Assembly (NCBI GenBank): GCA_018241505.1 | Contig: JAFEDS010000011.1 | Span: forward strand, 1-64,000 | Reading direction: 5' to 3' | From: Pseudomonadota bacterium | Lineage (GTDB): Bacteria; Pseudomonadota; Gammaproteobacteria; Steroidobacterales; Steroidobacteraceae | Length of the DNA: 64,000 nucleotides | In this document: positions 893-15,306 of the stretch, piece by piece | Layout of the letters: the number at the start of each line of letters is the position of its first letter | Numbering within the stretch: position 1 is the stretch's first letter | Notes under the pieces: generated by a model | Seen by the model: the letters and a program-made list of their open reading frames with translations, nothing else | Database searches by the model: none | Told to the model about the DNA's origin: nothing | Translations under genes and position numbers: made by a program

Positions 893-1321
893 TTGTCTGC
901 CTCAGACCTATCACAGTTTCTCGGCTGTCGGTACCGAACTGCGTTGGATCTGGCCGTGGTGCGTAGTCTGCACAGTGCGCCGCACTGGATTGATCCTGTG
1001 GCCGTGATCCTGCAACAGCTGGGTTTCGAGCACGAGTCCCGCTACGCGGACTCTCTGGCACAAGAAGGCGTGACGTTGCTCAATCTCTCAGAAAGTGCCA
1101 GCGAGGTTGCCGAGCAGGCCACCACCCAGGTCTGCGCGAGGGAGTGGATGTCCTGTTGTAGCCCGTCCTCCGACGCGGGCATTGGGTCGGACGGCTTGAT
1201 GTTCTCCGTCGCGGGGACACACCGAGCGACTTCGGTTCCTGGTCATACGAAATTTTCGATACCAAGCTCGCACGAGGCACGCGCGGGTGGGACCATTCTG
1301 CAGCTCGCTGCCCAACGTTAG
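893..1321 (+). pseudogene. TM0106-type RecB-like nuclease, frameshifted N-terminal remnant
   Basis: From the TTG at 893 the product reads LSASDLSQFLGCRYRTALDL, then about 50 more residues, matching the start of the large TM0106-family RecB-like nucleases (usually around 1,000 residues). Similarity fades after about residue 75. A downstream stretch in another frame (about 1237-1315: YEIFDTKLARGTRAG, then TILQLA) matches the family's metal-binding nuclease core, so at least one frameshift lies near 1,180-1,230. The rest of the gene is absent: the tail runs into the 3' end of the opposite-strand helicase gene. It is best read as a decayed relic. Confidence 0.6.
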
Positions 1322-2754
1322 CGGGACTTGCCTCGCTGGGGCAGTTGCGGGGTGAGCAGTGCTTGCAATATGTCGGGTTTTCGAAGTGCGAGATCATCCG
1401 CGTCAATATGGTCGACGTCCTTCTGGGTGAACCGAGCCAAGCGATGCTTTTGCTCCAAGGCGAAATCGATGAACTCATCGACCGTCTGCGCAGCCAAAAG
1501 CAGCACGATGTCACATTCGCGTGTCTGCGAGATCCGATGAATTCTATCTTGTGATTGCAGGTAATCGACTAGGTTGAACGTGCGATCGAGATAGATAGCG
1601 ACGTTGGCCTCAGTCAGCGTGAGACCTTCCCGCGCGGCAGCCGGGTTGGCGACTAGTAGCCGCACGCTAGGGTCGCCTCTGAAGGTTCGAACTGCATGAT
1701 CGCGAGCGGCGGAATCTTGTTCCCCATAGATCCTCACGGGTTTGAGGTGGGGGTAGCGAGCCGCGACTGCCTGGATGTTTCCAACGAAGGAACTCCAAAC
1801 GATGACTTTGCGCTCCGTCGTATATGCCTCCAGGAGGTCATCCAGCGCCGCCAACTTCGTGGGTACCTCATCGTAGCCGGCATCGATGAGCCCCGGATTA
1901 CTGGCAATTTGTGCCAGTCTCAATATTCGCGTAAAGATCAGTTCGCCGTGTTTCTGAACATCCTCGCCAGATAAGGAGCGCACCCACACCGCGAGTTCAT
2001 CACGCATCTGTTCGTAGAGCGCCCGCTGGCGGCCGGACAGCTCGACTGATACTCGGTGGAATTGCTTGGGCGGCAGTTCCAATGAACCTTCCTTGGTGCG
2101 CCGGAGCGCGAGGTGCATGATGCGCTCGCGCATCTCGTCAACGCTCTGATAGCCACCGCCAGTGCAAAATCGCCGTTGGAACTCTTCGAAAGTCGTCCCC
2201 AGCGCAACTCCGTCGTCCAAGAAAAACGCTTGGCTCCAGACATCTTCCGGTTTATTCGCGACCGGCGTCCCGGTGAGTATGTAGCGGCGGTGAGCTTCGG
2301 TTCGCAGCTGCAGTACGGCGCGGGTGACTTTGGAGTCCGGTGTCTTGATACGATGACTTTCGTCCAGCACCAGTGCCATCGGCTTGAAGCGCAGGAGCTG
2401 ACGGAGGGACGCGAGTTCAGCGTGGACGGCCTCATAGTTGATGATATAAAACGCTGCCCGCAGGCTCCGGAACGCGACACGCCGCGCCTTGCGCCCCGAG
2501 CCGAATACGGCATAGGGCAACGTGGAGAACCGCTCAACTTCTTCCGCCCACTTGGTCTTGAGCCCGTTGGGGCAGACGATCAAGGCGCCGCCCAGCGTGG
2601 CGTTGGCGACCTCAGCCGATACGGCATCGATCAACTGCTTGCTCTTGCCGAGACCTTGCTCGTCAAAGAGGGCCGCACGCTCGTTTTCGCGCAGGAATCT
2701 AGTGCCAGCGATTTGGTGGGGCAGGGACGCGGGCGGACGGTTGCCGCGCGACAT
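1318..2754 (-). CDS. SNF2-family helicase/translocase
   Basis: A 478-residue superfamily 2 ATPase of the SNF2 type that probably translocates along duplex DNA. Visible motifs: motif I DEQGLGKS (residues 31-38), motif II DESH (131-134), motif III TGTP (161-164) and motif VI QSQDRIHRISQT near residue 410. No extra DNA-binding or nuclease domain is seen. The ATG at 2754 has GAGGAG seven bases upstream, so it is preferred over an ATG 24 bases earlier. The gene start lies inside the 3' end of the ExK nuclease-like gene, implying translational coupling and a shared role. It is the last gene of the leftward operon of the island. Resembles the small SNF2 helicases of restriction and modification loci. 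Confidence 0.88.
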   Translation of the reverse strand: MSRGNRPPASLPHQIAGTRFLRENERAALFDEQGLGKSKQLIDAVSAEVANATLGGALIVCPNGLKTKWAEEVERFSTLPYAVFGSGRKARRVAFRSLRAAFYIINYEAVHAELASLRQLLRFKPMALVLDESHRIKTPDSKVTRAVLQLRTEAHRRYILTGTPVANKPEDVWSQAFFLDDGVALGTTFEEFQRRFCTGGGYQSVDEMRERIMHLALRRTKEGSLELPPKQFHRVSVELSGRQRALYEQMRDELAVWVRSLSGEDVQKHGELIFTRILRLAQIASNPGLIDAGYDEVPTKLAALDDLLEAYTTERKVIVWSSFVGNIQAVAARYPHLKPVRIYGEQDSAARDHAVRTFRGDPSVRLLVANPAAAREGLTLTEANVAIYLDRTFNLVDYLQSQDRIHRISQTRECDIVLLLAAQTVDEFIDFALEQKHRLARFTQKDVDHIDADDLALRKPDILQALLTPQLPQRGKSR

Positions 2755-3178
2755 GAGTGGACTCCTCAAGTAGGACATCAGGAATGTGCAATCGAATTAC
2801 GTGACGCGCACCGATGAGTCCGGTCGCGATCAGGGCGCGGTCGAGTTCGTACACCGCGGATCGCGGGACCGCGATGTACAAGCGGCAGAGGGCTCCCGAG
2901 CGTTTGTCGACGAGGCCGCCAAAAACACGGAGCTGACGATAACTGTGCTCAGTGGCCAGATCATCTGCAGTCTTTGCTTCACCCACGGCGATCTCGTCGG
3001 TCTCAGGCACTACGCCGCTGGCGTCGCAGCGCACCCCTGCGATCGAGAACGGCGGCGGCAACCGATTCCAAGCGCCGGCGTAGGGCGCAGGGCCATCGAA
3101 TCCGGTGAGTACGAGCCCGTCTCGCGTCATTCGACGTGCGACCCAAAGGAGCAGATGCTGGTGAGCAGTAGAGGGCAT
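2699..3178 (-). CDS. Small PD-(D/E)xK nuclease-like protein
   Basis: A 159-residue protein. The segment around residues 52-70 (an Asp, a short spacer, then IAVGEAKT with E67-x-K69) has the look of the PD-(D/E)xK core, followed by a helix containing the Gln/Arg-rich SYRQLRVFGG often seen in this fold. If correct, it would be a metal-dependent DNA endonuclease and the SNF2 protein its motor. The ATG at 3178 is chosen because it follows the upstream ParB-like stop by four bases. The C-terminus overlaps the helicase start by 56 bases. Fold assignment is by motif only; a non-catalytic member cannot be excluded. Confidence 0.55.
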   Translation of the reverse strand: MPSTAHQHLLLWVARRMTRDGLVLTGFDGPAPYAGAWNRLPPPFSIAGVRCDASGVVPETDEIAVGEAKTADDLATEHSYRQLRVFGGLVDKRSGALCRLYIAVPRSAVYELDRALIATGLIGARHVIRLHIPDVLLEESTHVARQPSARVPAPPNRWH

Positions 3179-3182
3179 TTTT

Positions 3183-4193
3183 TCAAAAGGCCTTGCGCAC
3201 CCGCGTCGCCGCCTGCGTGATGCGCTCGATCTCTGTCTGCAACGCGTGCAGAATTCTCTGACGGTCTTCGCTTTCACCTAACTCAACGAGCTCTGTCACG
3301 GTCATCGCCTGCAGCCGGCTGCGCGCGCGTTCCATGACGGCATACAGCTCGTGCTCTTCGGGATGTTGCTGCGCGAGGTACTCGTCTGCGGCCTCAAATC
3401 CGACGACATCCAGCAAACGCGTCGCTTCGGCAGAATCCAAGATGCGGGGCAGACGCCGCACGCGAGCACCGGTATCGACGCGTTCATCGAGCACCCAGCG
3501 CGCGAAACGCTGCGGCAGATCAGCGATCTGCTCGACATGCGTCTGGATGCGTCCGTTCTTTTGAAACTCCAGGAAATAGGAGAACTTGGTTTTATGCTCT
3601 GGATCAGTCGGGTCGGCGGTGATCGGAAAGTAAAGTTGGTCCATCAGTTCTACCGCGGCCAGCTGCTGGCGCACCTCCCGGGCCGTCATCCGGTAGCGTT
3701 CGGCGACCTCGTCCTCGATGAGTCCCCCGTCGATCAGGCCTCGCATCTGCAGCGCCTTCTCGTACGGCGCCCAACCTCTTACCGACCCCAGGTGAATCTC
3801 GTTGAGCAGGTCCTGGACGACGTGTTCCGGCGTGTCTGCGGGGATCATCCACGCCGGCATCTTCGAGAACCGCGCATCGTCCGGAAACTCTTCCTTGATT
3901 GCGCGAATTGCGACAACACGGCGATTACCCTCGGCCACTCGCCCGTCCGCACGCACGTAGATCGGTTCCTGGATCCCATTAGAGCGCATGATGGACCGGC
4001 GCAGGCCCTCGGTATCTTCCTGGCTTGTGAGTAGCAGTGAGCACGCGGCCTCGTTGCGCTCGCTGGCCTCTAGCTGGCGCATGGAGAAGCTCACCCGCGG
4101 ATTGCTCGGGTCGAGCCGCAGTTCGTTCGGATCGACTTCCACCAGTGTTAGCTCGACGGGTTGTCCTTGAATGTTTCGGATGTACGTTGCCAT
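3183..4193 (-). CDS. ParB-like nuclease-domain protein (paralogue 3)
   Basis: A 336-residue protein with a ParB/sulfiredoxin-fold N-terminal domain: LDPSNPRV (residues 27-34), a QEPIYVRADGRVAEGNRR segment (about 75-92) equivalent to the ParB nucleotide-binding boxes, then a helix-turn-helix-like region (DEVAERYRMTAREVRQQL) and a long helical C-terminus. It is clearly paralogous to the next two genes but the most divergent, lacking their HVAGKN motif. The ATG at 4193 is 13 bases after the preceding stop. Known relatives bind CTP or ATP and DNA; canonical chromosome-partition function is unlikely without a parA neighbour. It probably acts in a complex with its paralogues. Confidence 0.8.
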   Translation of the reverse strand: MATYIRNIQGQPVELTLVEVDPNELRLDPSNPRVSFSMRQLEASERNEAACSLLLTSQEDTEGLRRSIMRSNGIQEPIYVRADGRVAEGNRRVVAIRAIKEEFPDDARFSKMPAWMIPADTPEHVVQDLLNEIHLGSVRGWAPYEKALQMRGLIDGGLIEDEVAERYRMTAREVRQQLAAVELMDQLYFPITADPTDPEHKTKFSYFLEFQKNGRIQTHVEQIADLPQRFARWVLDERVDTGARVRRLPRILDSAEATRLLDVVGFEAADEYLAQQHPEEHELYAVMERARSRLQAMTVTELVELGESEDRQRILHALQTEIERITQAATRVRKAF

Positions 4194-4206
4194 GAGGATT
4201 TCCGAT

Positions 4207-5253
4207 TTAGTCGTCAATGCCACAGAGCTCGAGGAAGTGCCCGAGCGCCTTCTTTAGATCTTGGGTAATGCGTCGTGCCTTGCTGCCATTCGCCCGTCTC
4301 ACCCGCTGAATGTCGTCCATCTGCGCTTTGCGAAGTGCCTCTGTCATCTCTACCATGCGACGAAAGAGTTTCGAGTTGATCGCCGGATTGTCCTCGGACA
4401 ACACACGCTGTGCTGCTGTAATTCCTTCCTCGGACAGCGCCTTGATCGCATCTTCACTTTCGAGAATCGCGGGAAGCTGACGCACGTGCACTCCCTGCGG
4501 AAGCTTGTTGGTGCCTACCCACTCAACGAAGCGAGATTCGGCCTTGTTGTCCGAGGCAACCCAGTCGCGCAGCGCAGGACTCTTGAACAACTCATCGAAA
4601 TGGCTGAATTTGCGAATACTCGCGGCCCCCGGGTAGTAGGGCAGAAACTGATTCTTCATGACATCAAATGCACGAATGAGCTGATTAACTTTTGACTTCG
4701 ACATGCGCAGCCGTTGGGCGATCTCGTCCTGAGTTAACGCGAAGTCCTTGTGCATCCGGTAGACATGGCCTGCTTTCTCGAAGGCGGTCCAGGTGTTCTT
4801 GCCTGCGACGTGCATCTCGCCCAGTAGGATCGCGATCTCTCGATCGCCAATGTCTTCTGGAAGAAGCCGAGCCGGAATGCGCTGCCACCGGGGGTCGGTC
4901 TTGAACTTTTCACGCAGCTTGCGATACACGACCGTGCGGCAATTGCCTTCGACGGCTGTGCGGTCGGGGCGCACGATGATACGTTCGACAAGGCCCTTGT
5001 TGATCAGGACTTGCCGATAGAGGTCGCGGACGTCGTCATCTTCCCACAGCAAGTTCTCCAGCCGCTTTTGAAGCGCAGGGCCTTCTTCGGTGATGGATAC
5101 GGCCACTGTGTTGGCGATGCGCGGATTGCGAGGATCTAGGCGCACCTCATCGAGCGGCAGATCGACGTTCTGCACCTGAACCTTGCGGCCATCGAGAGTA
5201 ATCTCATCGACGACGAGGGGTTCGGCCGGCACAGTGTTGCGCAATGTAGCCAT
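4207..5253 (-). CDS. ParB-like nuclease-domain protein (paralogue 2)
   Basis: A 348-residue protein with the same plan as its neighbours: RLDPRNPRI (residues 38-46), an IIVRPDRTAVEGNCR segment (about 92-106), a TDPRWQRIPARLLP loop, the shared GEMHVAGKNTWTAFEKAGH motif, and a helix-turn-helix (DEIAQRLRMSKSKVNQLIRA) before a helical C-terminus. The ATG at 5253 lies four bases after the upstream stop, so the three genes are one transcription unit. The EGNCR form replaces the GERRxRA box of partition ParB, as in many stand-alone ParB-domain proteins of mobile or defence loci. The substrate is unknown. Confidence 0.82.
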   Translation of the reverse strand: MATLRNTVPAEPLVVDEITLDGRKVQVQNVDLPLDEVRLDPRNPRIANTVAVSITEEGPALQKRLENLLWEDDDVRDLYRQVLINKGLVERIIVRPDRTAVEGNCRTVVYRKLREKFKTDPRWQRIPARLLPEDIGDREIAILLGEMHVAGKNTWTAFEKAGHVYRMHKDFALTQDEIAQRLRMSKSKVNQLIRAFDVMKNQFLPYYPGAASIRKFSHFDELFKSPALRDWVASDNKAESRFVEWVGTNKLPQGVHVRQLPAILESEDAIKALSEEGITAAQRVLSEDNPAINSKLFRRMVEMTEALRKAQMDDIQRVRRANGSKARRITQDLKKALGHFLELCGIDD

Positions 5254-5257
5254 GGAC

Positions 5258-6295
5258 CTACAGCTCGAAGCCCGAGGTCTTCGCCACGTTGTTGATCGCG
5301 GCGAAAAGCTCACGCAGCAGTTGTTGCGGCTTGCGCTCTTGTCGGATGCGCTGAAGTTCGGTTGATGCGAGGCCGCGGAGAACCTCGGTCAGATCCTTCA
5401 CCTTGCGAAAGACGACTGAGTCGGCGGTCGGATCTGACTTGCCCACGACCGCCACGGCGTCTTTGAAACCGCTTTTCTTCAAGACCTTGGTGGCACGCTC
5501 GTGCTTGAGGATTTTTGGTAGGTCACGCACCTGTACTCCATGCTTGACCTTTTGATCGACCACCAGGGATACAAACTCGTCGATGTTGCTTTCGCTCTGG
5601 CGGTACTCCTCGAGGTCCTTGTTTTTGTAGAACTCCTCGACATGGCTCCATCGGTCGAGACCGCGACCACCCTTGATCTTCGGCAGGACCTTCTCGCGCA
5701 TGGTTTTGTAGGCCGCGAGGAGACGGGTCACTACGCGCTCCTGCATCCCGAGTGCTTTGGCGATCGCTGGCACAGTCATCTTCAGATCAGTGTGCATGGC
5801 GTGCAAGTGTCCGGCCTTCTCGTAGGCGCGCCACTTGTTCTTGCCGGCCACATGAAACTGCCCCTGCAAGACTGCCACTTGGCGGTCGGTAATTTTCGGC
5901 ACCATATATACGGGCACGGTGCGCCAGCGCGGGTCTGTCTTGTTTGGACCATGGAGCCGCATCATGGCAGCCGCGCGGCAGTTGCCTTCAATCACTCGAC
6001 CATCGGGTCGGACGTGGATCGGCTCGATGAGGCCGCCGTTGTCGCGGATCGCTTTGAACAAATCCGAAACGCCGGGCTGCTCAAGGATCAAGTCGCGGAG
6101 CTGCTCCTGTGTCAGCGGGGCCCCACCATTAGTTTTCTGTCGGACCGCGTGCTGGATTCGTGGGTTGTCGGAATCGAGGACGATGTCGTTGATAGCCATG
6201 TCGCGTCGCTCAACAACGATCGCCGCGCCTTCGATCGAAATCTGGCCAGTCCCCACCGTCGTGGTTGTTGATACCGCTGCTGCCTTTCGGCCCAT
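5258..6295 (-). CDS. ParB-like nuclease-domain protein (paralogue 1)
   Basis: A 345-residue ParB-domain protein: DSDNPRI (41-47), then EPIHVRPDGRVIEGNCR (about 91-107), a TDPRWRTVPVYMVP loop, the shared HVAGKNKWRAYEKAGH motif and a helix-turn-helix (IAKALGMQERVVTRLLAAY). The ATG at 6295 has GGGGAG nine bases upstream, which fixes the start. It is first in the leftward operon and abuts the divergent rightward operon with essentially no spacer, so its promoter must lie inside the small gene on the other strand. Closest in sequence to paralogue 2, suggesting tandem duplication and then specialisation within one complex. Confidence 0.82.
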   Translation of the reverse strand: MGRKAAAVSTTTTVGTGQISIEGAAIVVERRDMAINDIVLDSDNPRIQHAVRQKTNGGAPLTQEQLRDLILEQPGVSDLFKAIRDNGGLIEPIHVRPDGRVIEGNCRAAAMMRLHGPNKTDPRWRTVPVYMVPKITDRQVAVLQGQFHVAGKNKWRAYEKAGHLHAMHTDLKMTVPAIAKALGMQERVVTRLLAAYKTMREKVLPKIKGGRGLDRWSHVEEFYKNKDLEEYRQSESNIDEFVSLVVDQKVKHGVQVRDLPKILKHERATKVLKKSGFKDAVAVVGKSDPTADSVVFRKVKDLTEVLRGLASTELQRIRQERKPQQLLRELFAAINNVAKTSGFEL

Positions 6296-6650
6296 GACCA
6301 CATGCTCCCCGTATGAGGAAGCTTCACGTATCGTGCTGGAATTCTGGGCCGCGGTCGCGATGGCAATGCCCAAGGAATGGAGCAATCCCCGCAAGCATAT
6401 TCTTACCAAGGGAATTGGTGTCTATGCCTTGATGGACATCGCCGCGGACCTCTACCGAGAAGCGGGTGCCAAGGCAGCGTGTGACCACCAGTACTTCGCT
6501 GCTGCACTCGCCGACTTCTGTACGGAATTCGACTGGTCGACCAGCGGGCCACTCAAGGGCTTGGGAGGTGAAGGCGGGGTGAAAACGGCGGTGGAAAGGA
6601 TACGCGATGTGCGACGCAAGGCGCGGTTCAAGGTAATTGCAAATGGCTAA
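6294..6650 (+). CDS. Small protein resembling the C-terminal module of DGQHR/DndB-type proteins
   Basis: About 118 residues, read from the ATG at 6294; a GTG at 6333 or ATG at 6360 are alternatives, and none has a strong ribosome site. The order EFW, EWSNPRKHILTKGIGVYAL, then FDWSTSGPLKGLGGEGGVK near the end recalls the helical tail of DGQHR-domain proteins (ParB/sulfiredoxin superfamily, including DndB), but the DGQHR catalytic-fold portion is absent. Its last eight bases overlap the radical SAM start, so it is likely translated with that gene. Either an independently encoded subunit or a domain relic; I favour a real gene because composition and coupling look maintained. Confidence 0.5.
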   Translation: MTTCSPYEEASRIVLEFWAAVAMAMPKEWSNPRKHILTKGIGVYALMDIAADLYREAGAKAACDHQYFAAALADFCTEFDWSTSGPLKGLGGEGGVKTAVERIRDVRRKARFKVIANG

Positions 6651-8283
6651 CAAGAAAATTCTGCTCATCGAACCGGGCTACAAGAACAAGTACCCTCCGC
6701 TTGGCCTGATGAAGATCGCCCAGTATCACGGGCCGCGCGGGAAGCGAGACGAGGTCCGCTTCATTAAGGGCGAGAATCGTTCCGTGCTGGGTACCGCCTG
6801 GGATCGCATCTACATCACAACCTTGTTCTCGTTCGAGTATGACCGAATCGCAGCTTCGATCGATTTCGCGCTACAGGTCGCGAACGGCCACGCCGACAAG
6901 ATCTTTGTCGGTGGGATCGCTACTTCACTGATGCATCAGCGCTTTCTCGACGAACCTCGATGGCATGGAATTCGATTCATCAAAGGCCTCCTCAGTGCGT
7001 CGCCTGCCGCGTCGCTGAAGTTGGATGACTTCTCCGAGGAGCTCTACTCCGATGATATGAATGGAGTTCCGATTGAGGATCTTGTGCCGGACTACAGCAT
7101 CCTCGACCAGATTGACTACCCCTATCCGGTCCGGGATGCGTACTTCGCCTATACGTCTCGTGGATGCATACGCAAATGCGGATTCTGCGGCGTGCCGAAG
7201 CTCGAAGGTGCCCAGCGTGACACCGAGTCGCTCACTTCGCTCGTGAAGGCCATCGACAAGTACTACGGGGTCAAAAAAGACCTCATCCTGATGGACAACA
7301 ACGTCGTCGCCTCTCCACGATTCAAGGAAATCATCGCCGAGATCCGCGATCTTGGCTTCTTGCCCAATGTGAAGATTCGCCGGCCGCAAGAGCGCGTGGC
7401 TGTGCAGCGTCGCGTGGACTTCAACCAAGGGGTGGACGCCCGTATTCTGTGTAAGGACCCGATGTACTTGCGGGAGCTTGCGAGCATCTGCCTGAAGCCG
7501 CTGCGAATTGCATTCGATCACTTAGGACTGCGCGAGCCCTATGAGAAGGCGATTCGGTACGCGCATGAGTTCGGTTTGACCGAGCTCTCCAATTACATGC
7601 TCTACAACTTTCACGACTCGCCAGGCGATCTCTTTGAGCGTATGCGCCTCAACGTTGCGCTGAACGAGGAGCTTGGCGTGCGCATCTGGTCTTTCCCCAT
7701 GCGATTTCAGCCGACCGATCGTCCGGACCGCGGACACGTCGGCAAGCACTGGACGCGCTATCAACTACGATCGATGCAAATCATTCTGCAAGCAACGCAT
7801 GGAATCGTCAGCGGCGCGCCCGATTTCTTTAAGCGCGCGTTTGGTGATACACCCGGGGACTTCGAGTCGATCCTGTTGCACCCGCACGATTATATCTTCA
7901 ACCGCGAGTGGTACGAGCGGCACGACCAGAAGCAGGAGCTGCACTCCTATCGTGAAGCCGCCCAGCATCTAACTCCAGATGAGCGCGGGGAACTGCTGAA
8001 GCTCCTCTCATCGTGCGATCCGCGCGATTTCAGCGGCTTGAAAGCACACACACAAAACGAACACATCAGGTCGGTTCTGGCGTTCTACATTCCTAAACCA
8101 AAGAATGAGCTATTCGATATATGGGCACGGCAGAAGGTGCTCGCGCGTGAGTCGAATGACAAGCAGGATATGGTGGCGGAAGACGAACGTGTCGAGGACG
8201 CGGGTCTCGAGCAGGATCTCGACAATCTGACCGCAAGTATGAAACCCAAAGAATCAAGCCGTAGGACCAGGGCAGTAGCATGA
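6643..8283 (+). CDS. Radical SAM protein with a B12-binding-like N-terminal region
   Basis: A 546-residue protein. Residues 1-45 (KILLIEPGYKNKYPPLGLMK) resemble the start of cobalamin-binding-like modules found in many radical SAM enzymes, and the cluster-binding motif C175-x3-C179-x2-C182 (SRGCIRKCGFCG) is intact, so a 4Fe-4S/SAM radical reaction is expected. The C-terminal 100 residues are charged and probably non-catalytic. The ATG at 6643 overlaps the upstream stop, and its own stop overlaps the next start (ATGA at 8280-8283), so it is firmly within the operon. The substrate is unknown; in this setting a nucleic-acid base, a nucleotide or a partner protein are all possible. The fold call is firm, the role is not. 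Confidence 0.85.
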   Translation: MANKKILLIEPGYKNKYPPLGLMKIAQYHGPRGKRDEVRFIKGENRSVLGTAWDRIYITTLFSFEYDRIAASIDFALQVANGHADKIFVGGIATSLMHQRFLDEPRWHGIRFIKGLLSASPAASLKLDDFSEELYSDDMNGVPIEDLVPDYSILDQIDYPYPVRDAYFAYTSRGCIRKCGFCGVPKLEGAQRDTESLTSLVKAIDKYYGVKKDLILMDNNVVASPRFKEIIAEIRDLGFLPNVKIRRPQERVAVQRRVDFNQGVDARILCKDPMYLRELASICLKPLRIAFDHLGLREPYEKAIRYAHEFGLTELSNYMLYNFHDSPGDLFERMRLNVALNEELGVRIWSFPMRFQPTDRPDRGHVGKHWTRYQLRSMQIILQATHGIVSGAPDFFKRAFGDTPGDFESILLHPHDYIFNREWYERHDQKQELHSYREAAQHLTPDERGELLKLLSSCDPRDFSGLKAHTQNEHIRSVLAFYIPKPKNELFDIWARQKVLARESNDKQDMVAEDERVEDAGLEQDLDNLTASMKPKESSRRTRAVA

Positions 8284-9932
8284 GCGAGCAAGCCGCACTT
8301 CGAGTCGTCAACCCCTCTCGGGCCAGGGCAGGTGAAACCTCAACGGACTGGGGTCCCAGTTCTGCTCCCGTCGTGATTGGCAAAGACGTGCTGGAACTTC
8401 TCAGCACCTCAATGTACGTCGATGCAATGACAATCTATCGCGAGTACGTCCAAAATGCGGCTGACGCGGTCGATGAAGCTCGCGATAAGGGCCTGTTGGG
8501 AGATCGGAGTGCCGGTAAAGTCGATATCACGGTCGACGCGACGGCGCGCCTGATCCGAATTCAGGATAACGGCACCGGCATCGGGTGGCCCGAGTTCGCG
8601 GAGCGACTCAGCAACCTTGGCGCGAGCACCAAACGCGGGACGGCTGCTCGCGGCTTTCGAGGCGTGGGCCGACTGGCAGGACTTGGTTATTGCCAAGAGC
8701 TGATATTTCGCTCACGAGTGGACGGCGACTCCGACGTATCGGAGTTACGCTGGGACTGCCGGGCGCTCAAGACGGCCCTACGTTCGGCACGTCACACGCA
8801 GCCAATCGCCACTCTGATCCAGGACATCGTGTCGGTACGTCGAGTTCCAGCAGAACGTCAGCCCAAGCGGTTCTTCGAAGTCGAGCTACGAGGCGTCATT
8901 CGTCATCGCAATGACCGACTGCTGAGTCAAGTTGCCGTCGGCGAGTATCTGGCCCAAGTAGCGCCTCTCCCCTTCGCACCAGACTTCAAGTTTGGCGAGG
9001 AGATCGTAGCGGCATTGCGGCCTCATGTACGCCTGGGAGACTTGGAGGTCCGCATCAACGGTGCCGAGGAACCCCTCTATCGACCCCACAGAAATCGTGT
9101 CGAGGTCGGCGAGGGTCAGTTCGATAAAGTGACCGATCTTGAAATCCGAGAGTTGACCGGAGTTGATGGCGGTACCAGTGCGATCGCTTGGATTCTCCAC
9201 CATGGGTACACGGGGGCGCTACCCAACAGGGCGCTCGTGAAGGGCTTCCGCTTTCGTGCTGGTAACATGCAGGTCGGCGACAATAATCTCCTGGAGGAAT
9301 TGTTTCCTGAGCCTCGGTTCAACGGCTGGGCGATTGGGGAAATACATGTACTCGATGGGAAGGTGGTTCCGAATGGGCGGCGCGACCACTTCGAGCAAAG
9401 CGTTCATTATGACAATCTCATAAACCAGATTACCCCTTCCGCAAGGGAAATTGCGCGCCGATGTCGCCAAAGCTCCATTGGGCGCAAATGGATACGCGAG
9501 TTTGAATTGCACAGCGATGCAGCCCTTTCGCACGCGAAGGCTTGCGCACGGGGCGGCCTATCACGTGCAGCCAAGCGCACTCACTCAGATGCGGTGGCAA
9601 AAGCTCTCAAGGCCGTCAAGAAAGTGGTTACCACGCGCCATATCGGTGACGATACACGAACGGATCTGTCGGCCCAGGCGGCGGCACTCGAAGCCCGGGT
9701 GACCAAACTCATGGGGTCGGCGCCTGCGGAGAAGGATCCCCTGGAGGCTTTCAAGCCCCAGGTGCGGTCGGCGTACCAAAATGTAATATCACTCATCTAT
9801 GAGTTTGCAAGCAACTCAGCCGCCGCGGCGACGCTCGTAGAAAAAATCCTCTCAAGAATTGGCCAAGACATAACGCAATCCGGAGCCTCGGGCCCCAAGA
9901 AGAAACTGACGAAAAAGTCCAAACACCGATAG
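8280..9932 (+). CDS. GHKL (Hsp90-like) ATPase, first of two
   Basis: A 550-residue protein with the GHKL ATP-binding fold near its N-terminus: EYVQNAADA (residues 55-63, with the catalytic Glu and Mg-binding Asn), DNGTG (96-100) and a glycine-rich lid GFRGVGRLAG (125-134). The middle region has an Hsp90/MutL-like layout that ends with PNGRRDHFE, typical of the catalytic loop of Hsp90-like proteins in conflict systems. The C-terminal 150 residues are Lys/Ala-rich and helical. ATP-driven dimer clamping is the expected activity. The start overlaps the radical SAM stop. It shares its whole plan with the second GHKL gene and is probably a paralogue that works with it. Confidence 0.85.
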   Translation: MSEQAALRVVNPSRARAGETSTDWGPSSAPVVIGKDVLELLSTSMYVDAMTIYREYVQNAADAVDEARDKGLLGDRSAGKVDITVDATARLIRIQDNGTGIGWPEFAERLSNLGASTKRGTAARGFRGVGRLAGLGYCQELIFRSRVDGDSDVSELRWDCRALKTALRSARHTQPIATLIQDIVSVRRVPAERQPKRFFEVELRGVIRHRNDRLLSQVAVGEYLAQVAPLPFAPDFKFGEEIVAALRPHVRLGDLEVRINGAEEPLYRPHRNRVEVGEGQFDKVTDLEIRELTGVDGGTSAIAWILHHGYTGALPNRALVKGFRFRAGNMQVGDNNLLEELFPEPRFNGWAIGEIHVLDGKVVPNGRRDHFEQSVHYDNLINQITPSAREIARRCRQSSIGRKWIREFELHSDAALSHAKACARGGLSRAAKRTHSDAVAKALKAVKKVVTTRHIGDDTRTDLSAQAAALEARVTKLMGSAPAEKDPLEAFKPQVRSAYQNVISLIYEFASNSAAAATLVEKILSRIGQDITQSGASGPKKKLTKKSKHR

Positions 9933-9956
9933 CTTCCAGATCAGGGACGAATCTCG

Positions 9957-11834
9957 ATGCAACTCGATCCGTTCGTACGCGACTATCCGGTTTATGTTGA
10001 TGAGCTAATTCAAGCGCTCCAGAAACCGAGCACTCGGCTGTACCTCGACACCTCTCTCCTCATGTGGCTAATACGTCTGGGGTCGCAGGCTCGCGATGAG
10101 TTTCTTGAATGGTGCAAGGGACGGGCGCCTGCCTCAATCCGTGTTCCAGTGTGGGCTGCACATGAGTTGCATCGACACGTCATAGGCGGAACGATTCGCG
10201 CGAATGTCAAGCAGACGGTCAGCGAGACGCAACGCAAGTACGCCGAGTTCACCAGCATGGCCGCGGAGCGAGCCGACGATGAAGCGTGTCGCGCTCGGGG
10301 CTATACGGGCCGAAGCAGCTATGTCGGTGAGTTGGAGAAATCGGCCGCAGTTCTCAAAAACCTCTCCCAGATGTTCCAGTCAGACGACGAATCGTTACGC
10401 GGGGCAACCCAGGAAATTATTGAGTTCGTCAATCCTCATCTCCTGACATCCGATCTCAACCCGGCCGTCAGTGGCCTGAGCGTCACCGGAGAATTCCGAT
10501 TTGCACATCGCATGCCCCCCGGCTTCGAAGATAAAAAGGAAGAGAATGCCTTCGGGGATGCCATCATCTGGGAAGAGATCGTGCAAGACGTATCCGCGGC
10601 GTCATCAGGTGACGGTTCAGCACCTATTGACGCAATCATCGTCTCTCGAGACAAGAAAAAGGATTGGGTGTCGTCCGCACCGTTGGTTCGGAACGCTTAC
10701 GGGAAGACTCAGAATCCAGATCACGACACGAGCCTCGATGTCTCCCTTCCTCATCCGCTGCTCGTCCACGATTTCGCTAAGCGAGGTGGTGGGGGTCGCT
10801 TGTATGTCGCTACGCCTGCGTTTCTCGCTACGGCACTTCACCGTGACGCTCGCAAGAGTGGCCGCGTCAGTGGCGTCCAACATTGGTTGGCAGCATCCCA
10901 TCGCCCTGAGTTCTTGACGAGACTCATCGAGGACGAGAAGGGACCTGCCAGCAAGGACCAGGGGCCGGGTTCGCCACCAGGGTCTGCTTCCAACGTGGCG
11001 CCTCCGTCACCGTTGCCGCCATCGGCCAATAGTGACGAAGCGCTCAAAGGGGAAACATCCTCATCAGTGATGGGGGCGAACATCGGTGAGGAAGTCCGTC
11101 AATTGAGGGATGCTCTTCCGCAAGAACAGATGGCACTGATTGAAGGTTTGACCCAACAGCTCCTGAGTGGCGGGCTATCTGCGTTTGCGTTCGGGCGAGT
11201 ACTTGCCCAGATATCGCTTGAACGCGTCATCGGCTGGCCTGATCAGATCCCGGCGCTGTTGGAAATGCTTGCACCAAGAGTTCCCGGGCCGATGCTGAAT
11301 GGCATCACGCTCGCTGTGATTACATCGATCTATTTTGACCGCTACGGCGAGCCTCTGGGGCGGCCCATGGCTTCGCTCGGCGCAGTGTGCCTGTCACTTG
11401 AAAGCAATCCCGGATTGGAACCAGCCTTTCGCTGCCTCGCCCGGTTTCTTGCTGAGGCTGATGTGAAACTGCCATACGTTCCCGGCGGGTCAGCACGCAG
11501 TGTTAAATACACGGTTGACGCCATTGCAGGTGGTACGCCGCGAGTCTTGCGCGACGTCCGAATTGGCCAATTACCTGTCTTGGCCGATTCCCTGTCGGCT
11601 TCAAGTGCCCGTCGCTTGACGGCGGTCTTCGGTCGCTCAGAGACAGATGGTTGCACTGGGCAAGAGCTTCGATCGCTGTTGGCCAGAGAATATCTGATCC
11701 CCTTGGGTGCCCTTTCTACTCAGTACGACCAGACGAGATACACCTGGTCAGCCGACCGGGGGCTCGTCGTCATGGATACCGGTGTCGACGGCGGGCTGAG
11801 TGCTTTCGCAGACGAGGAAGACAACAATGAGTGA
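9957..11834 (+). CDS. PIN_8-type nuclease-like protein with a long C-terminal region
   Basis: A 625-residue protein. The N-terminal 240 residues carry the acidic set of the PIN_8 (PIN-like) family: LYLDTSLLMWL (D31), an ENAFGDAIIWEEI segment (D201) and IIVSRDKKKDWV (D232 plus KKDW), pointing to a metal-dependent RNA- or DNA-cutting domain. A Pro/Ser-rich linker (about 325-355) leads to a helical C-terminal half I do not recognise. It starts 24 bases after the first GHKL gene and its stop overlaps the second GHKL start by eight bases, so it sits between the two ATPases. Plausibly the toxic effector whose activity the ATPases gate. Confidence 0.75.
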   Translation: MQLDPFVRDYPVYVDELIQALQKPSTRLYLDTSLLMWLIRLGSQARDEFLEWCKGRAPASIRVPVWAAHELHRHVIGGTIRANVKQTVSETQRKYAEFTSMAAERADDEACRARGYTGRSSYVGELEKSAAVLKNLSQMFQSDDESLRGATQEIIEFVNPHLLTSDLNPAVSGLSVTGEFRFAHRMPPGFEDKKEENAFGDAIIWEEIVQDVSAASSGDGSAPIDAIIVSRDKKKDWVSSAPLVRNAYGKTQNPDHDTSLDVSLPHPLLVHDFAKRGGGGRLYVATPAFLATALHRDARKSGRVSGVQHWLAASHRPEFLTRLIEDEKGPASKDQGPGSPPGSASNVAPPSPLPPSANSDEALKGETSSSVMGANIGEEVRQLRDALPQEQMALIEGLTQQLLSGGLSAFAFGRVLAQISLERVIGWPDQIPALLEMLAPRVPGPMLNGITLAVITSIYFDRYGEPLGRPMASLGAVCLSLESNPGLEPAFRCLARFLAEADVKLPYVPGGSARSVKYTVDAIAGGTPRVLRDVRIGQLPVLADSLSASSARRLTAVFGRSETDGCTGQELRSLLAREYLIPLGALSTQYDQTRYTWSADRGLVVMDTGVDGGLSAFADEEDNNE

Positions 11835-13416
11835 ACGCACCCCTGGCGACGAAAAGCGAAGCCCGCACATTGGTGCGTTTGTACTCGAGACCCTGACGCT
11901 GGGCATGTATGGTGATCCTAGGCACACGCTACGCGAATATGTCCAGAATGCATACGACTCGATCCGTGCGGCGCAGAGAACGAAGTTCCTCAATGATCGA
12001 GGTCGGGTCGATGTCACGATAGCATCCGATGCGATCACTATTCGCGATAATGGGTTGGGAGTGAGGGCAGATCTGGCGTGGGTCACTCTGACTTCGATTG
12101 GCGCATCGAGAAAGGACCGCGCCCGAGATGCGGGTTTTCGGGGAATCGGCAGGCTGGCTGGAATGGCGTATTGCGAGGAGCTGACGTTTCGCACCACATT
12201 TCCCGGTGAGACAACGCTTTCGACTGTACGTTTCGACTGCAATAAGCTTTTGGCAGCGATGAGTCCCGACGAAGGCGGCGAAACTGAGCTGGCAACCTTA
12301 CTGTCCAGTGCTGTGACAATCGAGCAACAGGAAGGCGGCGCCACATCTGATGAGCACTTCTTTGAGGTGCATTTAAATGGTCTAGCGAGAGCTCCCGAGG
12401 CACTCACCAATCCCGTTGAAGTAGGAGCGTATCTATCCGAGACGGTGCCCGTCGGGTTTTCCTCGGAGTGGACGCGTCGCGAGGAGATCGAAGCTGATTA
12501 CAGGTCATACTTCGGGGTGCCGCTGGAGACCGTCGACGTTTACGTGTCAGCGAATGACACTACCACGCAGCTATTCAAACCATACGGTGATACTTACCAA
12601 CAACAAAAAGGTATTGCGCAACTGCAGAGCGTGGAATTTCACCGTGGAGAAGACCAGCGATATTGGGGTTGGGTAGGTTACCTATCCGAGTCGGGCGCAG
12701 TTACAGATTGGAAAACCCGTGGTCTGCGTGTTCGTACGCGGAACATTCAAGTCGATGGCACCCAAGTCTTTGAGAGTATGTTTACGGACGTTAAGCCATC
12801 GTATGGGCGCTTCAGCACTTACTTTGTAGGTGAAATACACATTGACCCCGAAAAGGTCATACCCAACGCGAGGCGCGACGGTTTCGAAGAGAACGAGGCT
12901 TGGCTCTCCATCAAGAGAAGTCTGATCGCCCAGATCTGTGAACCTCTGGCGAAGCATGCCTATCAAGCTTCCCAAGACCAGCAGGCCGATGTTGACAAAG
13001 TGATTGCCGAAATCGACCGACTGGTCGACCGCAGCCACAGCATCGCGGACAACTCAAAGTCCACCTATGACCAGGTCGTGGACCTGATGAACACGGCCAA
13101 GCGTTTGCGTCGAAAAGCGAGCTCAGCTTTAAAGTCGGTATCCGATCTGGATGATACCGCCGTCGACCAGGGTGCTTCGCGAACGGATCTGCACGCCAGC
13201 AAGCTTCAGGATGCTGCGAAGAATGTTGAAGGCGTCGAGACGCAGGCCCGCATGTTGATTGGGCGCTTCCTGGAGGAAGACGAGCGCCTGGCAGCGCTCA
13301 AGAAGCGGATACGAGAAGAACTCATCGCAGAGTTGCTGGAGATCGTGAATGCCTTCGTTGACGCAGGGACCTACCAACGCATCAAACGGCAATTAGTCAA
13401 GAACACCCAAGGCTGA
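11827..13416 (+). CDS. GHKL (Hsp90-like) ATPase, second of two
   Basis: A 529-residue protein with the same architecture as the first GHKL protein: EYVQNAYDS (37-45), DNGLG (74-78), lid GFRGIGRLAG (103-112), the PNARRDGFE loop, and a long coiled C-terminal region. The ATG at 11827 overlaps the PIN gene stop (ATGAGTGA), which decides the start over an upstream alternative at 11800. Two related but distinct ATPases in one operon suggest a heterodimer or two stages of one ATP-dependent switch. An Hsp90-like chaperone role is the family expectation; the client is unknown. Confidence 0.85.
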   Translation: MSERTPGDEKRSPHIGAFVLETLTLGMYGDPRHTLREYVQNAYDSIRAAQRTKFLNDRGRVDVTIASDAITIRDNGLGVRADLAWVTLTSIGASRKDRARDAGFRGIGRLAGMAYCEELTFRTTFPGETTLSTVRFDCNKLLAAMSPDEGGETELATLLSSAVTIEQQEGGATSDEHFFEVHLNGLARAPEALTNPVEVGAYLSETVPVGFSSEWTRREEIEADYRSYFGVPLETVDVYVSANDTTTQLFKPYGDTYQQQKGIAQLQSVEFHRGEDQRYWGWVGYLSESGAVTDWKTRGLRVRTRNIQVDGTQVFESMFTDVKPSYGRFSTYFVGEIHIDPEKVIPNARRDGFEENEAWLSIKRSLIAQICEPLAKHAYQASQDQQADVDKVIAEIDRLVDRSHSIADNSKSTYDQVVDLMNTAKRLRRKASSALKSVSDLDDTAVDQGASRTDLHASKLQDAAKNVEGVETQARMLIGRFLEEDERLAALKKRIREELIAELLEIVNAFVDAGTYQRIKRQLVKNTQG

Positions 13417-13460
13417 GTCCAGCCGGACGAGACGCTTTGTAATCGACGGTAGCTGCACGA

Positions 13461-14000
13461 ATGAAGGCTCTCTACTACCTCGCATATGGCTCCAATCTGC
13501 ACCCGCTCCGACTGATGCAGCGCGTGCCGTCAGCCAAATCGGTTGACGTGATAGAGCTAGCCGGAAAGAGGGTCAACTTTCACAAGCGCAGCGTAGATCG
13601 GTCCGGTAAATGCAACCTTATCGATGAGAATTCGGTCTCCTCATACGGAGTGCTCTATGAGTTCGCAGCCAACGAGCGACCGGCGTTGGATGCTGCAGAA
13701 GGGTTAGGCAGTGGTTATCGAGAGGCTCTGCTTCAGTTTACGTGTCGCGGAGAACTCTACACGCCCTACGTTTACGTGGCGGAGTCTGCTTTCATTGATC
13801 CAAGCCTAAAACCCTATCATTGGTATCGGCAGCTGGTGATCGCGGGAGCCCAATATCATGGATTTCCCAGTGCATACCTCAGTGCATTGGAGAAGGTTGA
13901 GGCCATCCCCGATCCCGATTCCGAGCGAGCCACCCGAAATGCCGAGCTCCTCGTACAACTCGCTCAATACTCCGCCGTCGTGCCGATGCCGCCGCGCTAA
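13461..14000 (+). CDS. Gamma-glutamylcyclotransferase-like (AIG2-type) protein
   Basis: A 179-residue protein with the GGCT fold signature YGSNL at residues 9-13 and the likely catalytic Glu in AAEGLGSGYRE (about residue 80). Enzymes of this family release 5-oxoproline from gamma-glutamyl substrates, but many small bacterial members have unknown substrates and are common in accessory loci. It follows the second GHKL gene by 44 bases on the same strand and is probably the last gene of the operon. Whether it belongs to the system or is a passenger is unclear. Confidence 0.75.
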   Translation: MKALYYLAYGSNLHPLRLMQRVPSAKSVDVIELAGKRVNFHKRSVDRSGKCNLIDENSVSSYGVLYEFAANERPALDAAEGLGSGYREALLQFTCRGELYTPYVYVAESAFIDPSLKPYHWYRQLVIAGAQYHGFPSAYLSALEKVEAIPDPDSERATRNAELLVQLAQYSAVVPMPPR

Positions 14001-14294: not shown

Positions 14295-15306
14295 TGTGAA
14301 GTCCCAGAGCTAAGGTGACATTCTGGCTCCCTTCGTATTCCGGAGAGAGCACCATGACAAAAACTGAACAGAATCGCGTGGTTGCCTGGCGATTGAAGCT
14401 ACTACGACAGGCCAGCGACGCCCCGAGGGGCGTGGCGCGGGCGTGCCGGCATTTCGGCCTCTCTCGCAAGACCTTCTACAAGTGGAAAGCCCGTTACAAG
14501 AACCACGGTGAGGCGGGCCTGTGCGATCGCCCTCGGGCCCCTCTGCACTCACCACGAACGACGTCCCGAACAGTGATCTCAAAGATTCTGTACTTGCGAG
14601 AACGCTACCGATTCGGGCCAGCCCGGATTACCAGCTACCTGCATCGCTTCCATAACATGGACGTAGCGCGTTCCACGGTACACCGCATACTGATCCGGTA
14701 TGGAATGAATCATCTGCCGGTCAATCAGCGGCGACAGTCGACAGGTCGTCCCTGGCAGCGTTACGAGAAGCCACAGCCTGGTCATCGCTTGCAGATCGAC
14801 GTGAAATTCCTGGAGCGAATCGCTGGCTCCAGAAAGCGGCTTTATCAGTTCACGGCCATTGATGACTGTACGCGCATTCGTGTGTTGAAGATCTACGACG
14901 TCTGTAATCAGAAGTCGGCGATTAGCTTCGTTGATGAGGTCGTCCGGCGACTGCCCTTCAGAGTGCTCGTAATACAGACAGACAACGGCGCGGAGTTCCA
15001 GTCCAACTTCCACTGGCACTTGGAGGAACATGACATTCGCCATGTATATATCCGGCCAAGAACCCCTCGGCTTAACGGAAAGGTCGAGCGATCACATCGT
15101 GTGGATGAGCAGGAGTTCTACCAACTCCTCGACAAAGACGGGATTGCCGATGACATCCATTTATTCAACGACAAGCTTCAAGAATGGGAGGACTATTACA
15201 ACTGCCACAGGCCTCACGGAGGCCTGGACGGACAGACTCCTTACGAGCGACTCCTGGAGAGAAAAGCCTCTGCCAAGGTATCACCGAAGTCCTGAGACCT
15301 TACACA
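14295..15306 (+). mobile_element. IS481-family insertion sequence
   Basis: About 1.0 kb, the usual size for the family. The left end begins TGTGAAGTCCCAGAGCTAAG at 14295. The right end, read on the other strand from 15306, begins TGTGTAAGGTCTCAGGACTT, giving an imperfect inverted repeat with small indels. A single transposase gene fills the element. No target duplication is obvious (flanks AGTCAG and GCGGGT), so the ends are provisional or flanking sequence has rearranged. It sits 12 bases from the 3' end of the tRNA gene. Confidence 0.7.
14354..15295 (+). CDS. IS481-family DDE transposase
   Basis: A 313-residue transposase. The N-terminal helix-turn-helix (SRKTFYKWKARYKNHGEAGL) is followed by an integrase-type catalytic core with the DDE triad in QIDVKFLERI, QTDNGAEFQSN and LNGKVERSHRVDEQEF, and the usual C-terminal HRPHGGLDGQTPYE motif. 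The ATG at 14354 has a GGAGAGAG purine stretch upstream and is preferred over the GTG at 14315. The frame is intact, so the element may still be active. Confidence 0.9.
   Translation: MTKTEQNRVVAWRLKLLRQASDAPRGVARACRHFGLSRKTFYKWKARYKNHGEAGLCDRPRAPLHSPRTTSRTVISKILYLRERYRFGPARITSYLHRFHNMDVARSTVHRILIRYGMNHLPVNQRRQSTGRPWQRYEKPQPGHRLQIDVKFLERIAGSRKRLYQFTAIDDCTRIRVLKIYDVCNQKSAISFVDEVVRRLPFRVLVIQTDNGAEFQSNFHWHLEEHDIRHVYIRPRTPRLNGKVERSHRVDEQEFYQLLDKDGIADDIHLFNDKLQEWEDYYNCHRPHGGLDGQTPYERLLERKASAKVSPKS

What the first reader, a model, noticed from the sequence alone, without database searches (positions are those of the whole stretch)
1318..14000. Unrecognised eleven-gene divergent system: three ParB-like proteins, ExK nuclease, SNF2 helicase, radical SAM enzyme, two Hsp90-like ATPases, PIN-like nuclease
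Two compact operons with start/stop overlaps meet head to head. The left one has three ParB paralogues, a small ExK protein and an SNF2 motor; the right one has a DGQHR-like tail, a radical SAM protein, GHKL ATPase, PIN_8 protein, GHKL ATPase and GGCT-like protein. Nuclease, motor, nucleotide-dependent switch and a putative modifying enzyme together suggest a DNA modification/restriction or abortive-defence system. It lies in an island flanked by transposon relics and a tRNA gene. I do not recognise this set as BREX, DISARM, Dnd/Ssp, Dpd or Zorya. The function is inference.
Basis: partly seen in the sequence, partly recalled or inferred. Interest (0 to 1): 0.87.

Follow-up and report, generated by a model that had tools for sequence, protein, structure and literature searches.

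The report
Radical-SAM/Hsp90-like system with swappable nucleases
The locus is a slightly damaged copy of a widespread, apparently unnamed bacterial gene system, probably for defence against foreign DNA, in which a radical-SAM enzyme and an Hsp90-like ATPase form a constant core beside interchangeable sets of DNA- or RNA-cutting genes.

Summary
Largely right. Nine intact genes lie at 1318-13416: SNF2 motor, PD-(D/E)xK-type nuclease, three ParB-like proteins, radical-SAM enzyme, Hsp90-like ATPase, PIN_8 protein, second Hsp90-like ATPase. The 'DGQHR-like tail' is a remnant: about the last 110 of 341 codons of a DndB/DpdB-like gene; the divergent intergenic region is gone too, so this copy may be crippled. 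The GGCT-like gene does not belong; no tRNA was found. The set recurs: an Hsp90-like ATPase directly follows the radical-SAM gene in 66 of 71 testable loci. Beside this core, ParB-nuclease-SNF2 and PIN_8-ATPase modules come and go; in Bacillota the neighbour is NurA-HerA. Two Sphingomonas loci share only the DGQHR-rSAM-ATPase cassette (81% DNA identity) and carry different nuclease modules. The core enzyme and its ATPase have no PADLOC 2.0 hit, and my paper searches listed no description. Best reading: a restriction-modification-like defence family whose core marks or senses DNA while plug-in modules destroy unmarked DNA. Defence is inferred from context; DNA modification by the radical-SAM enzyme is a hypothesis that DNA mass spectrometry can test.

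The parts
1318..2778 (-). SNF2-family SF2 motor (core helicase only, 486 aa; Walker A GLGKS and LDESH in the window sequence)
   Evidence: Pfam SNF2-rel_dom 8.7e-31, Helicase_C 3e-12; GLGK and LDE conserved at 95% or more in 40 rows
2699..3178 (-). small PD-(D/E)xK-type protein, probable nuclease; ORF opens at 3277, start that fits the relatives is about 3178
   Evidence: D85, E100, K102, Q115 invariant in 32 rows; no Pfam hit; fold not predicted
3183..4223 (-). ParB-like protein 1 (EGNRR motif)
   Evidence: EGNRR invariant in 6 rows; weak ParB-type PHROG and PADLOC hits
4207..5313 (-). ParB-like protein 2 (EGNCR, ParB-type HTH)
   Evidence: HTH_ParB 3e-4, TIGR00180 5e-5
5258..6295 (-). ParB-like protein 3 (EGNCR); ORF opens at 6409, start that fits the relatives is 6295
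   Evidence: TIGR00180 5.9e-6; alignment of relatives
6276..6650 (+). 3' remnant of a DGQHR (DndB/DpdB-like) gene, about the last 110 of 341 codons; deletion junction between about 6295 and 6314
   Evidence: 58% identity to residues 219-341 of the L079 protein
6637..8283 (+). radical-SAM enzyme, B12-domain-like N-terminus, C177-C181-C184, FNQGVDAR motif (start that fits the relatives: ATG 6643)
   Evidence: AlphaFold model pLDDT 86.9, near folds AprD4, MgmA, TsrM, MiaB
8280..9932 (+). Hsp90/MORC-like GHKL ATPase a (core partner)
9957..11834 (+). PIN_8-domain protein, probable nuclease
   Evidence: PF18476 5.4e-19; acidic D31, E70, D201, D232 conserved at 92% or more in 27 rows
11800..13416 (+). 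Hsp90-like GHKL ATPase b, partner of PIN_8
   Evidence: HATPase_c_3 7.5e-7; next to PIN8 in 27 of 27 loci with PIN8, window included
13461..14000 (+). GGCT/AIG2-like protein, judged NOT part of the system
   Evidence: AIG2_2 4.5e-8; no homologue in the other loci by blastp at E 1e-10

Best explanation
A mobile restriction-modification-like defence system. SHOWN: an rSAM enzyme plus an Hsp90/MORC-like ATPase (GHKLa), in most full loci with a DndB/DpdB-like DGQHR protein, form a conserved core, and nuclease-motor modules beside it are exchanged. INFERRED: the rSAM enzyme, helped by the DGQHR ATPase, marks host DNA (or a DNA-linked substrate). GHKLa acts as an ATP-driven clamp that couples marking or mark-sensing to the effectors. 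The ParB/PD-(D/E)xK/SNF2 module (NurA-HerA in Bacillota) recognises, translocates on and cuts unmarked invader DNA. PIN_8-GHKLb is a second, possibly RNA-cutting, abortive effector. The window copy has lost two thirds of DGQHR and the divergent intergenic region, so it may be weakly active or dead.
For: Recurrence: 76 loci in the genome collection, 12 of 18 plasmid records cover at least 80% of the rSAM protein (some are near-duplicates), 15 IMG/VR loci. GHKL directly follows rSAM in 66 of 71 testable loci and lies upstream in 2 more. Of 52 loci with at least 6.5 kb on both sides, 40 carry the SNF2 module (18), the PIN_8 module (15) or both (7). SNF2 presence needs 19 and PIN_8 presence 15 changes on a 77-row rSAM tree. 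L024 and L036 share one 4.2 kb block (81%) from DGQHR to GHKLa and have different nuclease modules. NurA-HerA-GHKL-rSAM in L076, L077 and in 5 of 7 regions of the same bacterial family and in viral records. Patchy: 1 of 60, 3 of 247 and 8 of 299 genomes, centres included. DGQHR of L079 matches TIGR03187 2e-41 and the DpdB model 8e-18. DpdB is reported to drive insertion of a modified base into DNA (PMC12839542, passages). GHKL ATPases with SNF2 helicases and RE-fold nucleases are described in R-M operons (PMC2292703, half of the main text read).
Against: No experiment. No function is shown for the rSAM: sequence similarity to solved enzymes is E 0.015 at best, and the near folds include tRNA, protein and small-molecule enzymes. 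DGQHR was found next to rSAM in only 32 of 52 full loci (at least L019 is an ORF-picking miss), so it is not essential. 12 of 52 full loci show neither main module, and in 7 of these I labelled no other nuclease or motor module either. L066, L074 and L075 have no GHKL gene, nor has the Marinitoga virus rSAM a labelled one. Defence-island evidence is thin: of 20 flanking proteins 8 match PADLOC at 1e-8, but 4 are accessories of this system and one looks like ClpB; the rest are UzuA, a dCTPase model and one candidate family; 0 of 10 control proteins match.
Confidence: 0.5

Rival explanations
1. Defence system without DNA marking: the rSAM enzyme makes an antiviral nucleotide analogue (viperin-like) or modifies RNA or a protein of the complex; the modules are abortive effectors triggered through the Hsp90-like switches.
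For: Same gene context as the best reading. Near folds include MiaB (tRNA), MgmA (protein), AprD4 and TsrM (small molecules). PIN_8-GHKLb in 22 of 52 full loci. DGQHR often absent.
Against: Nuclease-translocase pairs (PD-(D/E)xK-SNF2, NurA-HerA) and the DGQHR partner point to DNA as the substrate.
Confidence: 0.27
2. DNA repair or genome maintenance cassette: NurA-HerA and GHKL (MutL/MORC-like) with an rSAM that reverses or tags lesions.
For: HerA-NurA is described as an end-resection complex (PMC12977600, start of abstract in the search listing); rSAM repair enzymes exist (recalled: spore photoproduct lyase).
Against: Patchy distribution, plasmid, recombinase-flanked and viral contexts, module swapping.
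Confidence: 0.1
3. Selfish or plasmid-maintenance element (partition-like ParB genes, post-segregational killing by PIN_8).
For: ParB-like proteins; presence on plasmids, one with an annotated ParA gene about 1.6 kb from DGQHR (L080); PIN domains are common toxins (recalled).
Against: Five of 76 genome loci lie on contigs over 1 Mb, two of them titled chromosome; the nuclease-motor module is unexplained. ParA genes were not searched for.
Confidence: 0.08

Closest known systems
Dpd (7-deazaguanine in DNA) system
   Same: DGQHR protein (DpdB models, E 8e-18 and 8e-19) and SNF2 motor similar to the DpdE helicase region
   Different: No DpdA/TGT, DpdC or other Dpd model hit among the 20 proteins scanned; an rSAM enzyme and Hsp90-like ATPases instead
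Dnd/Ssp phosphorothioation systems
   Same: DndB-family protein (PF14072 7.7e-8); HerA-like ATPase similar to DndH in some relatives; modification core with separable restriction module
   Different: No DndA, C, D or E hit; [quoted passage not shown]
MORC/paraMORC restriction-modification operons (Iyer et al. 2008)
   Same: GHKL+S5 ATPase with SNF2-type helicase and an ExK nuclease
   Different: No DNA methylase recognised; rSAM, ParB and DGQHR genes; the words radical, ParB and Fe-S do not occur in that paper's main text
DISARM, Zorya, BREX
   Same: Similarity of the SNF2 core to DrmD, ZorD and BrxHI
   Different: No other component matched, apart from weak coiled-coil-type hits of GHKLb to ZorA (0.005 and 0.024)
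HerA-NurA and HerA-effector systems
   Same: In Bacillota and some viral records the core sits beside HerA (PDB 7f6d HerA, E 1.2e-38) and a NurA-like gene
   Different: Here linked to GHKL and rSAM; the window itself has no HerA

Membership tests
Dpd | DpdA (TGT-like transglycosylase) with DpdB | tested here: not met
   PADLOC scans of 10 window and 10 further proteins (one of them again from the window) hit, of Dpd models, only DpdB and DpdE
Dpd | DGQHR/DpdB protein | tested here: inconclusive
   In the relative L079 TIGR03187 is met (2.1e-41, 142.5 of 58.85 bits) but the DpdB equivalog cutoff is not (64.4 of 300 bits); in the window only a remnant
Dnd | DndC, DndD, DndE modification genes | tested here: not met
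   No such PADLOC hit
DISARM / Zorya / BREX | further core components beside the helicase (recalled: DrmA/B/C; ZorA/B; BrxC, PglX, PglZ) | tested here: not met
   Helicase-core hits only, plus weak GHKLb to ZorA hits at 0.005 and 0.024
paraMORC-type R-M operon | GHKL+S5 ATPase, SF2 helicase, RE-fold nuclease | tested here: met
   nuclease by motif only
paraMORC-type R-M operon | DNA methylase | tested here: not met
   None among the 10 window proteins scanned with Pfam; frequent rather than universal in that class
paraMORC-type R-M operon | membership of a named MORC or paraMORC subfamily | not tested
   Only fold similarity to MORC and Hsp90 was seen
Radical-SAM superfamily | CxxxCxxC cluster motif and rSAM barrel | tested here: met
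   C177, C181, C184 invariant in 44 rows; fold
B12-dependent rSAM methylases | cobalamin binding | not testable with these tools
   N-terminal fold is B12-domain-like; the top match AprD4 is titled a diol dehydratase
Anti-phage defence system | protection from phage or other foreign DNA | not testable with these tools
   needs a phage challenge

The most novel reading that the evidence does not exclude
The FNQGxDxR radical-SAM family is a DNA-modifying enzyme: with its Hsp90/MORC-like partner and a DGQHR ATPase it installs a so far undescribed DNA mark that plug-in nuclease modules read as self. That would be, as far as I know, the first restriction-modification class whose modification step is done by a radical-SAM enzyme, with phages carrying minimal versions of the same enzyme.
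Probability: 0.35. Interest if true: 0.92.

Novelty: new variant of a known kind. Interest (0 to 1): 0.74.

Why it matters
If right, this is a widespread defence family with a constant core and interchangeable killing modules, built on chemistry (radical SAM) not known to me in restriction-modification. It predicts a new DNA modification that one mass-spectrometry comparison can look for, and it gives prokaryotic Hsp90/MORC-like ATPases a concrete partner enzyme.

Tried and rejected
Rejected: the GGCT-like gene as a part (no relatives in the other loci); a tRNA beside the island; an intact DGQHR elsewhere in the same genome; an obvious sigma-70 promoter at the junction (0 found against 0.3 in shuffles, a weak test). 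Led nowhere: PDB sequence search with the nuclease alignment gave chance hits only; the NurA-like protein has no Pfam, NCBIfam or PDB sequence hit, so 'NurA' rests on the annotation of its homologue in Marinitoga camini virus 1 and its place beside HerA; the u2, u10 and u18 proteins have no Pfam hit. Papers: DGQHR with radical SAM gave one paper on another topic; DGQHR alone occurs in 6 papers, and none of those titles concerns this set; searches listed no description of it, but 17, 61, 73 and 95 showed only the top 30 of 8,017, 25 of 228, 15 of 38 and 5 of 3,405. The library holds open-licence PMC papers only and PADLOC is of 2023, so a newer or closed description may exist.
Full report
WHAT IS THERE. 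The two head-to-head operons exist as described. Left, on the minus strand: SNF2 motor, small PD-(D/E)xK-type protein and three ParB-like proteins. Right: radical-SAM (rSAM) enzyme, Hsp90-like ATPase (GHKLa), PIN_8 protein and a second Hsp90-like ATPase (GHKLb). Active-site motifs are conserved in alignments of relatives: CxxxCxxC in the rSAM (44 rows); E55, N59, D62 and D96 invariant and G98, G100 nearly so in GHKLa (42 rows); D85, E100, K102, Q115 in the nuclease (32 rows); GLGK and LDE in SNF2 (95% or more of 40 rows).

THE WINDOW COPY IS DAMAGED. The 'DGQHR-like tail' is the 3' end of a gene that is complete in relatives: window 6276-6647 aligns at 58% to residues 219-341 of a 341-residue protein, and nothing else in the 7.9 Mb genome matches at E 1. 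In four relatives with the same divergent layout (L029, L060, L063, L069) the distance from the ParB3 start to the rSAM start is about 1207-1283 bp; here it is 348 bp. The deletion removed about two thirds of DGQHR and the intergenic region; the junction lies between about 6295 and 6314. No sigma-70-like site was found there, which is weak evidence. An assembly error is possible; the genome is given as 93.9% complete with 5.67% contamination.

RECURRENCE. One scan of the genome collection gave 76 loci, plasmids 18 records of which 12 cover at least 80% of the protein, and IMG/VR 15 loci. A GHKL gene directly follows rSAM in 66 of 71 loci with 1.5 kb downstream; in 2 more (L076, L078) it lies upstream; L066, L074 and L075 have none. 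Of 52 loci with 6.5 kb on both sides, 18 have the SNF2 module, 15 PIN_8, 7 both and 12 neither. Of the 12, L045, L052 and L062 carry a HerA-like ATPase, L010 a large DndB-domain protein and L076 NurA-HerA; in the other 7 (L022, L034, L049, L056, L066, L074, L078) I labelled no nuclease or motor module, though L078 has a NurA-like stretch by eye and L022 a second DGQHR-like gene. DGQHR is next to rSAM in 32 of 52; at least L019 was missed by my ORF choice but is seen by tblastn. PIN_8 is next to GHKLb in all 27 loci that have it, the window included. The window's own module order (SNF2, nuclease, three ParB) is shared by L029, L060, L063, L069 and L082, in L082 pointing towards the core instead of away from it.

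MODULES ARE EXCHANGED. On an rSAM tree of 77 rows, SNF2 presence (40 rows) needs 19 changes and PIN_8 presence (27 rows) 15 (quick tree, short contigs inflate absences, and no shuffle control was run on these two labels). Two Sphingomonas loci, L024 and L036, share at blastn E 1e-10 exactly one 4.2 kb block, 81% identical, from the DGQHR start to 28 bp before the GHKLa end; L024 has PIN_8-GHKLb beside it, L036 ParB-nuclease-SNF2-ParB.

DIVERGENT FORM. In L076 (Lachnoclostridium) and L077 (Lachnospiraceae) the order is NurA-HerA-GHKL-rSAM. The phage record L086 has it too. HerA of L076 matches a solved HerA at 1.2e-38. Marinitoga camini virus 1 has a 360-residue rSAM beside HerA and NurA as annotated, without a labelled GHKL gene. 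Two Bacteroidales phages carry a 305-residue rSAM near annotated DNA methyltransferase genes. All four viral records checked share the FNQG(I/L)D(A/S)R motif. Among 15 IMG/VR loci, 13 have GHKL next to rSAM, 8 the SNF2/ParB module (in L088 without a labelled nuclease) and 2 NurA-HerA; whether these contigs are truly viral was not checked.

DISTRIBUTION. Found in 1 of 60 relatives of the window genome (itself), 3 of 247 genomes of the family of a Sinorhizobium host and 8 of 299 of the family of a Lachnoclostridium host, the centres included. The two further Rhizobiaceae-family regions both hold ParB-nuclease-SNF2-ParB and rSAM-GHKLa, one without DGQHR (L118, L119). Patchiness with a wide range suggests lateral transfer; phylum labels need 10 changes on the tree where 6 is the least possible, which is not proof.

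KNOWN SYSTEMS. PADLOC 2.0 gives no hit up to E 0.1 for rSAM, GHKLa, PIN_8 or the nuclease and only weak hits (0.0016 at best, TmtA) for GHKLb. SNF2 hits helicase regions (ZorD 7e-47, DpdE, DrmD and others); ParB proteins hit parts of PDC-M38A (3e-14 at best) and PD-Lambda-5_A. DGQHR of L079 hits DpdB. The nearest published idea is the MORC/paraMORC R-M operons (PMC2292703, about half of the main text read). DpdB as the ATPase of base insertion is taken from PMC12839542 passages; DndB/ParB discussion from PMC10853773 abstract and passages. Literature limits are in Tried and rejected.

MECHANISM AND CONFIDENCE. Shown: gene set, motifs, recurrence, modularity. Inferred: defence (about 0.77 over both defence readings), DNA marking by the rSAM enzyme (0.35 for the strict novel case, 0.5 for the R-M-like reading including mark sensing). 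A flank sample (20 taken at even steps from 97 nearest unlabelled ORFs) is weakly supportive: 8 of 20 match PADLOC at 1e-8, but 4 are the system's own accessories (L007, L024, L037, L052), one looks like ClpB (L074), and the rest are UzuA (L015), a dCTPase model (L060) and PDC-S33 (L010). Controls: 0 of 10, being 10 of the 12 ORFs of 380 aa or more at 20-64 kb, two overlapping ones left out.

Noticed in passing
window 17147-19990: Long ORF that looks to me like a multi-domain LigD-type NHEJ DNA ligase (by eye, not searched).
   Followed up: no
window 14315-15295: IS481-like transposase (rve, LZ_Tnp_IS481 hits) just right of the island.
   Followed up: partly
L081:17183-19492, L003:2045-4612: Large DndB-domain proteins beside the core; the pNL1 one also has a weak Swt1-like HEPN match (8e-4, below the cutoff), a possible RNase effector.
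   Followed up: partly
L085, L087 (Bacteroidales phages): Minimal rSAM relatives with the FNQGLDAR motif near annotated DNA methyltransferase and PAPS-reductase genes.
   Followed up: partly
L084:7998-11824 (Marinitoga camini virus 1): rSAM relative beside annotated HerA and NurA on a phage.
   Followed up: partly
L004, L024, L032, L036, L040, L069 (cluster u2): Unknown protein of about 470 aa near the core in 6 loci; the one searched (L024) has no Pfam hit.
   Followed up: no
L065, L066: rSAM gene split over two overlapping tblastn pieces, possible frameshifted or decaying copies.
   Followed up: no
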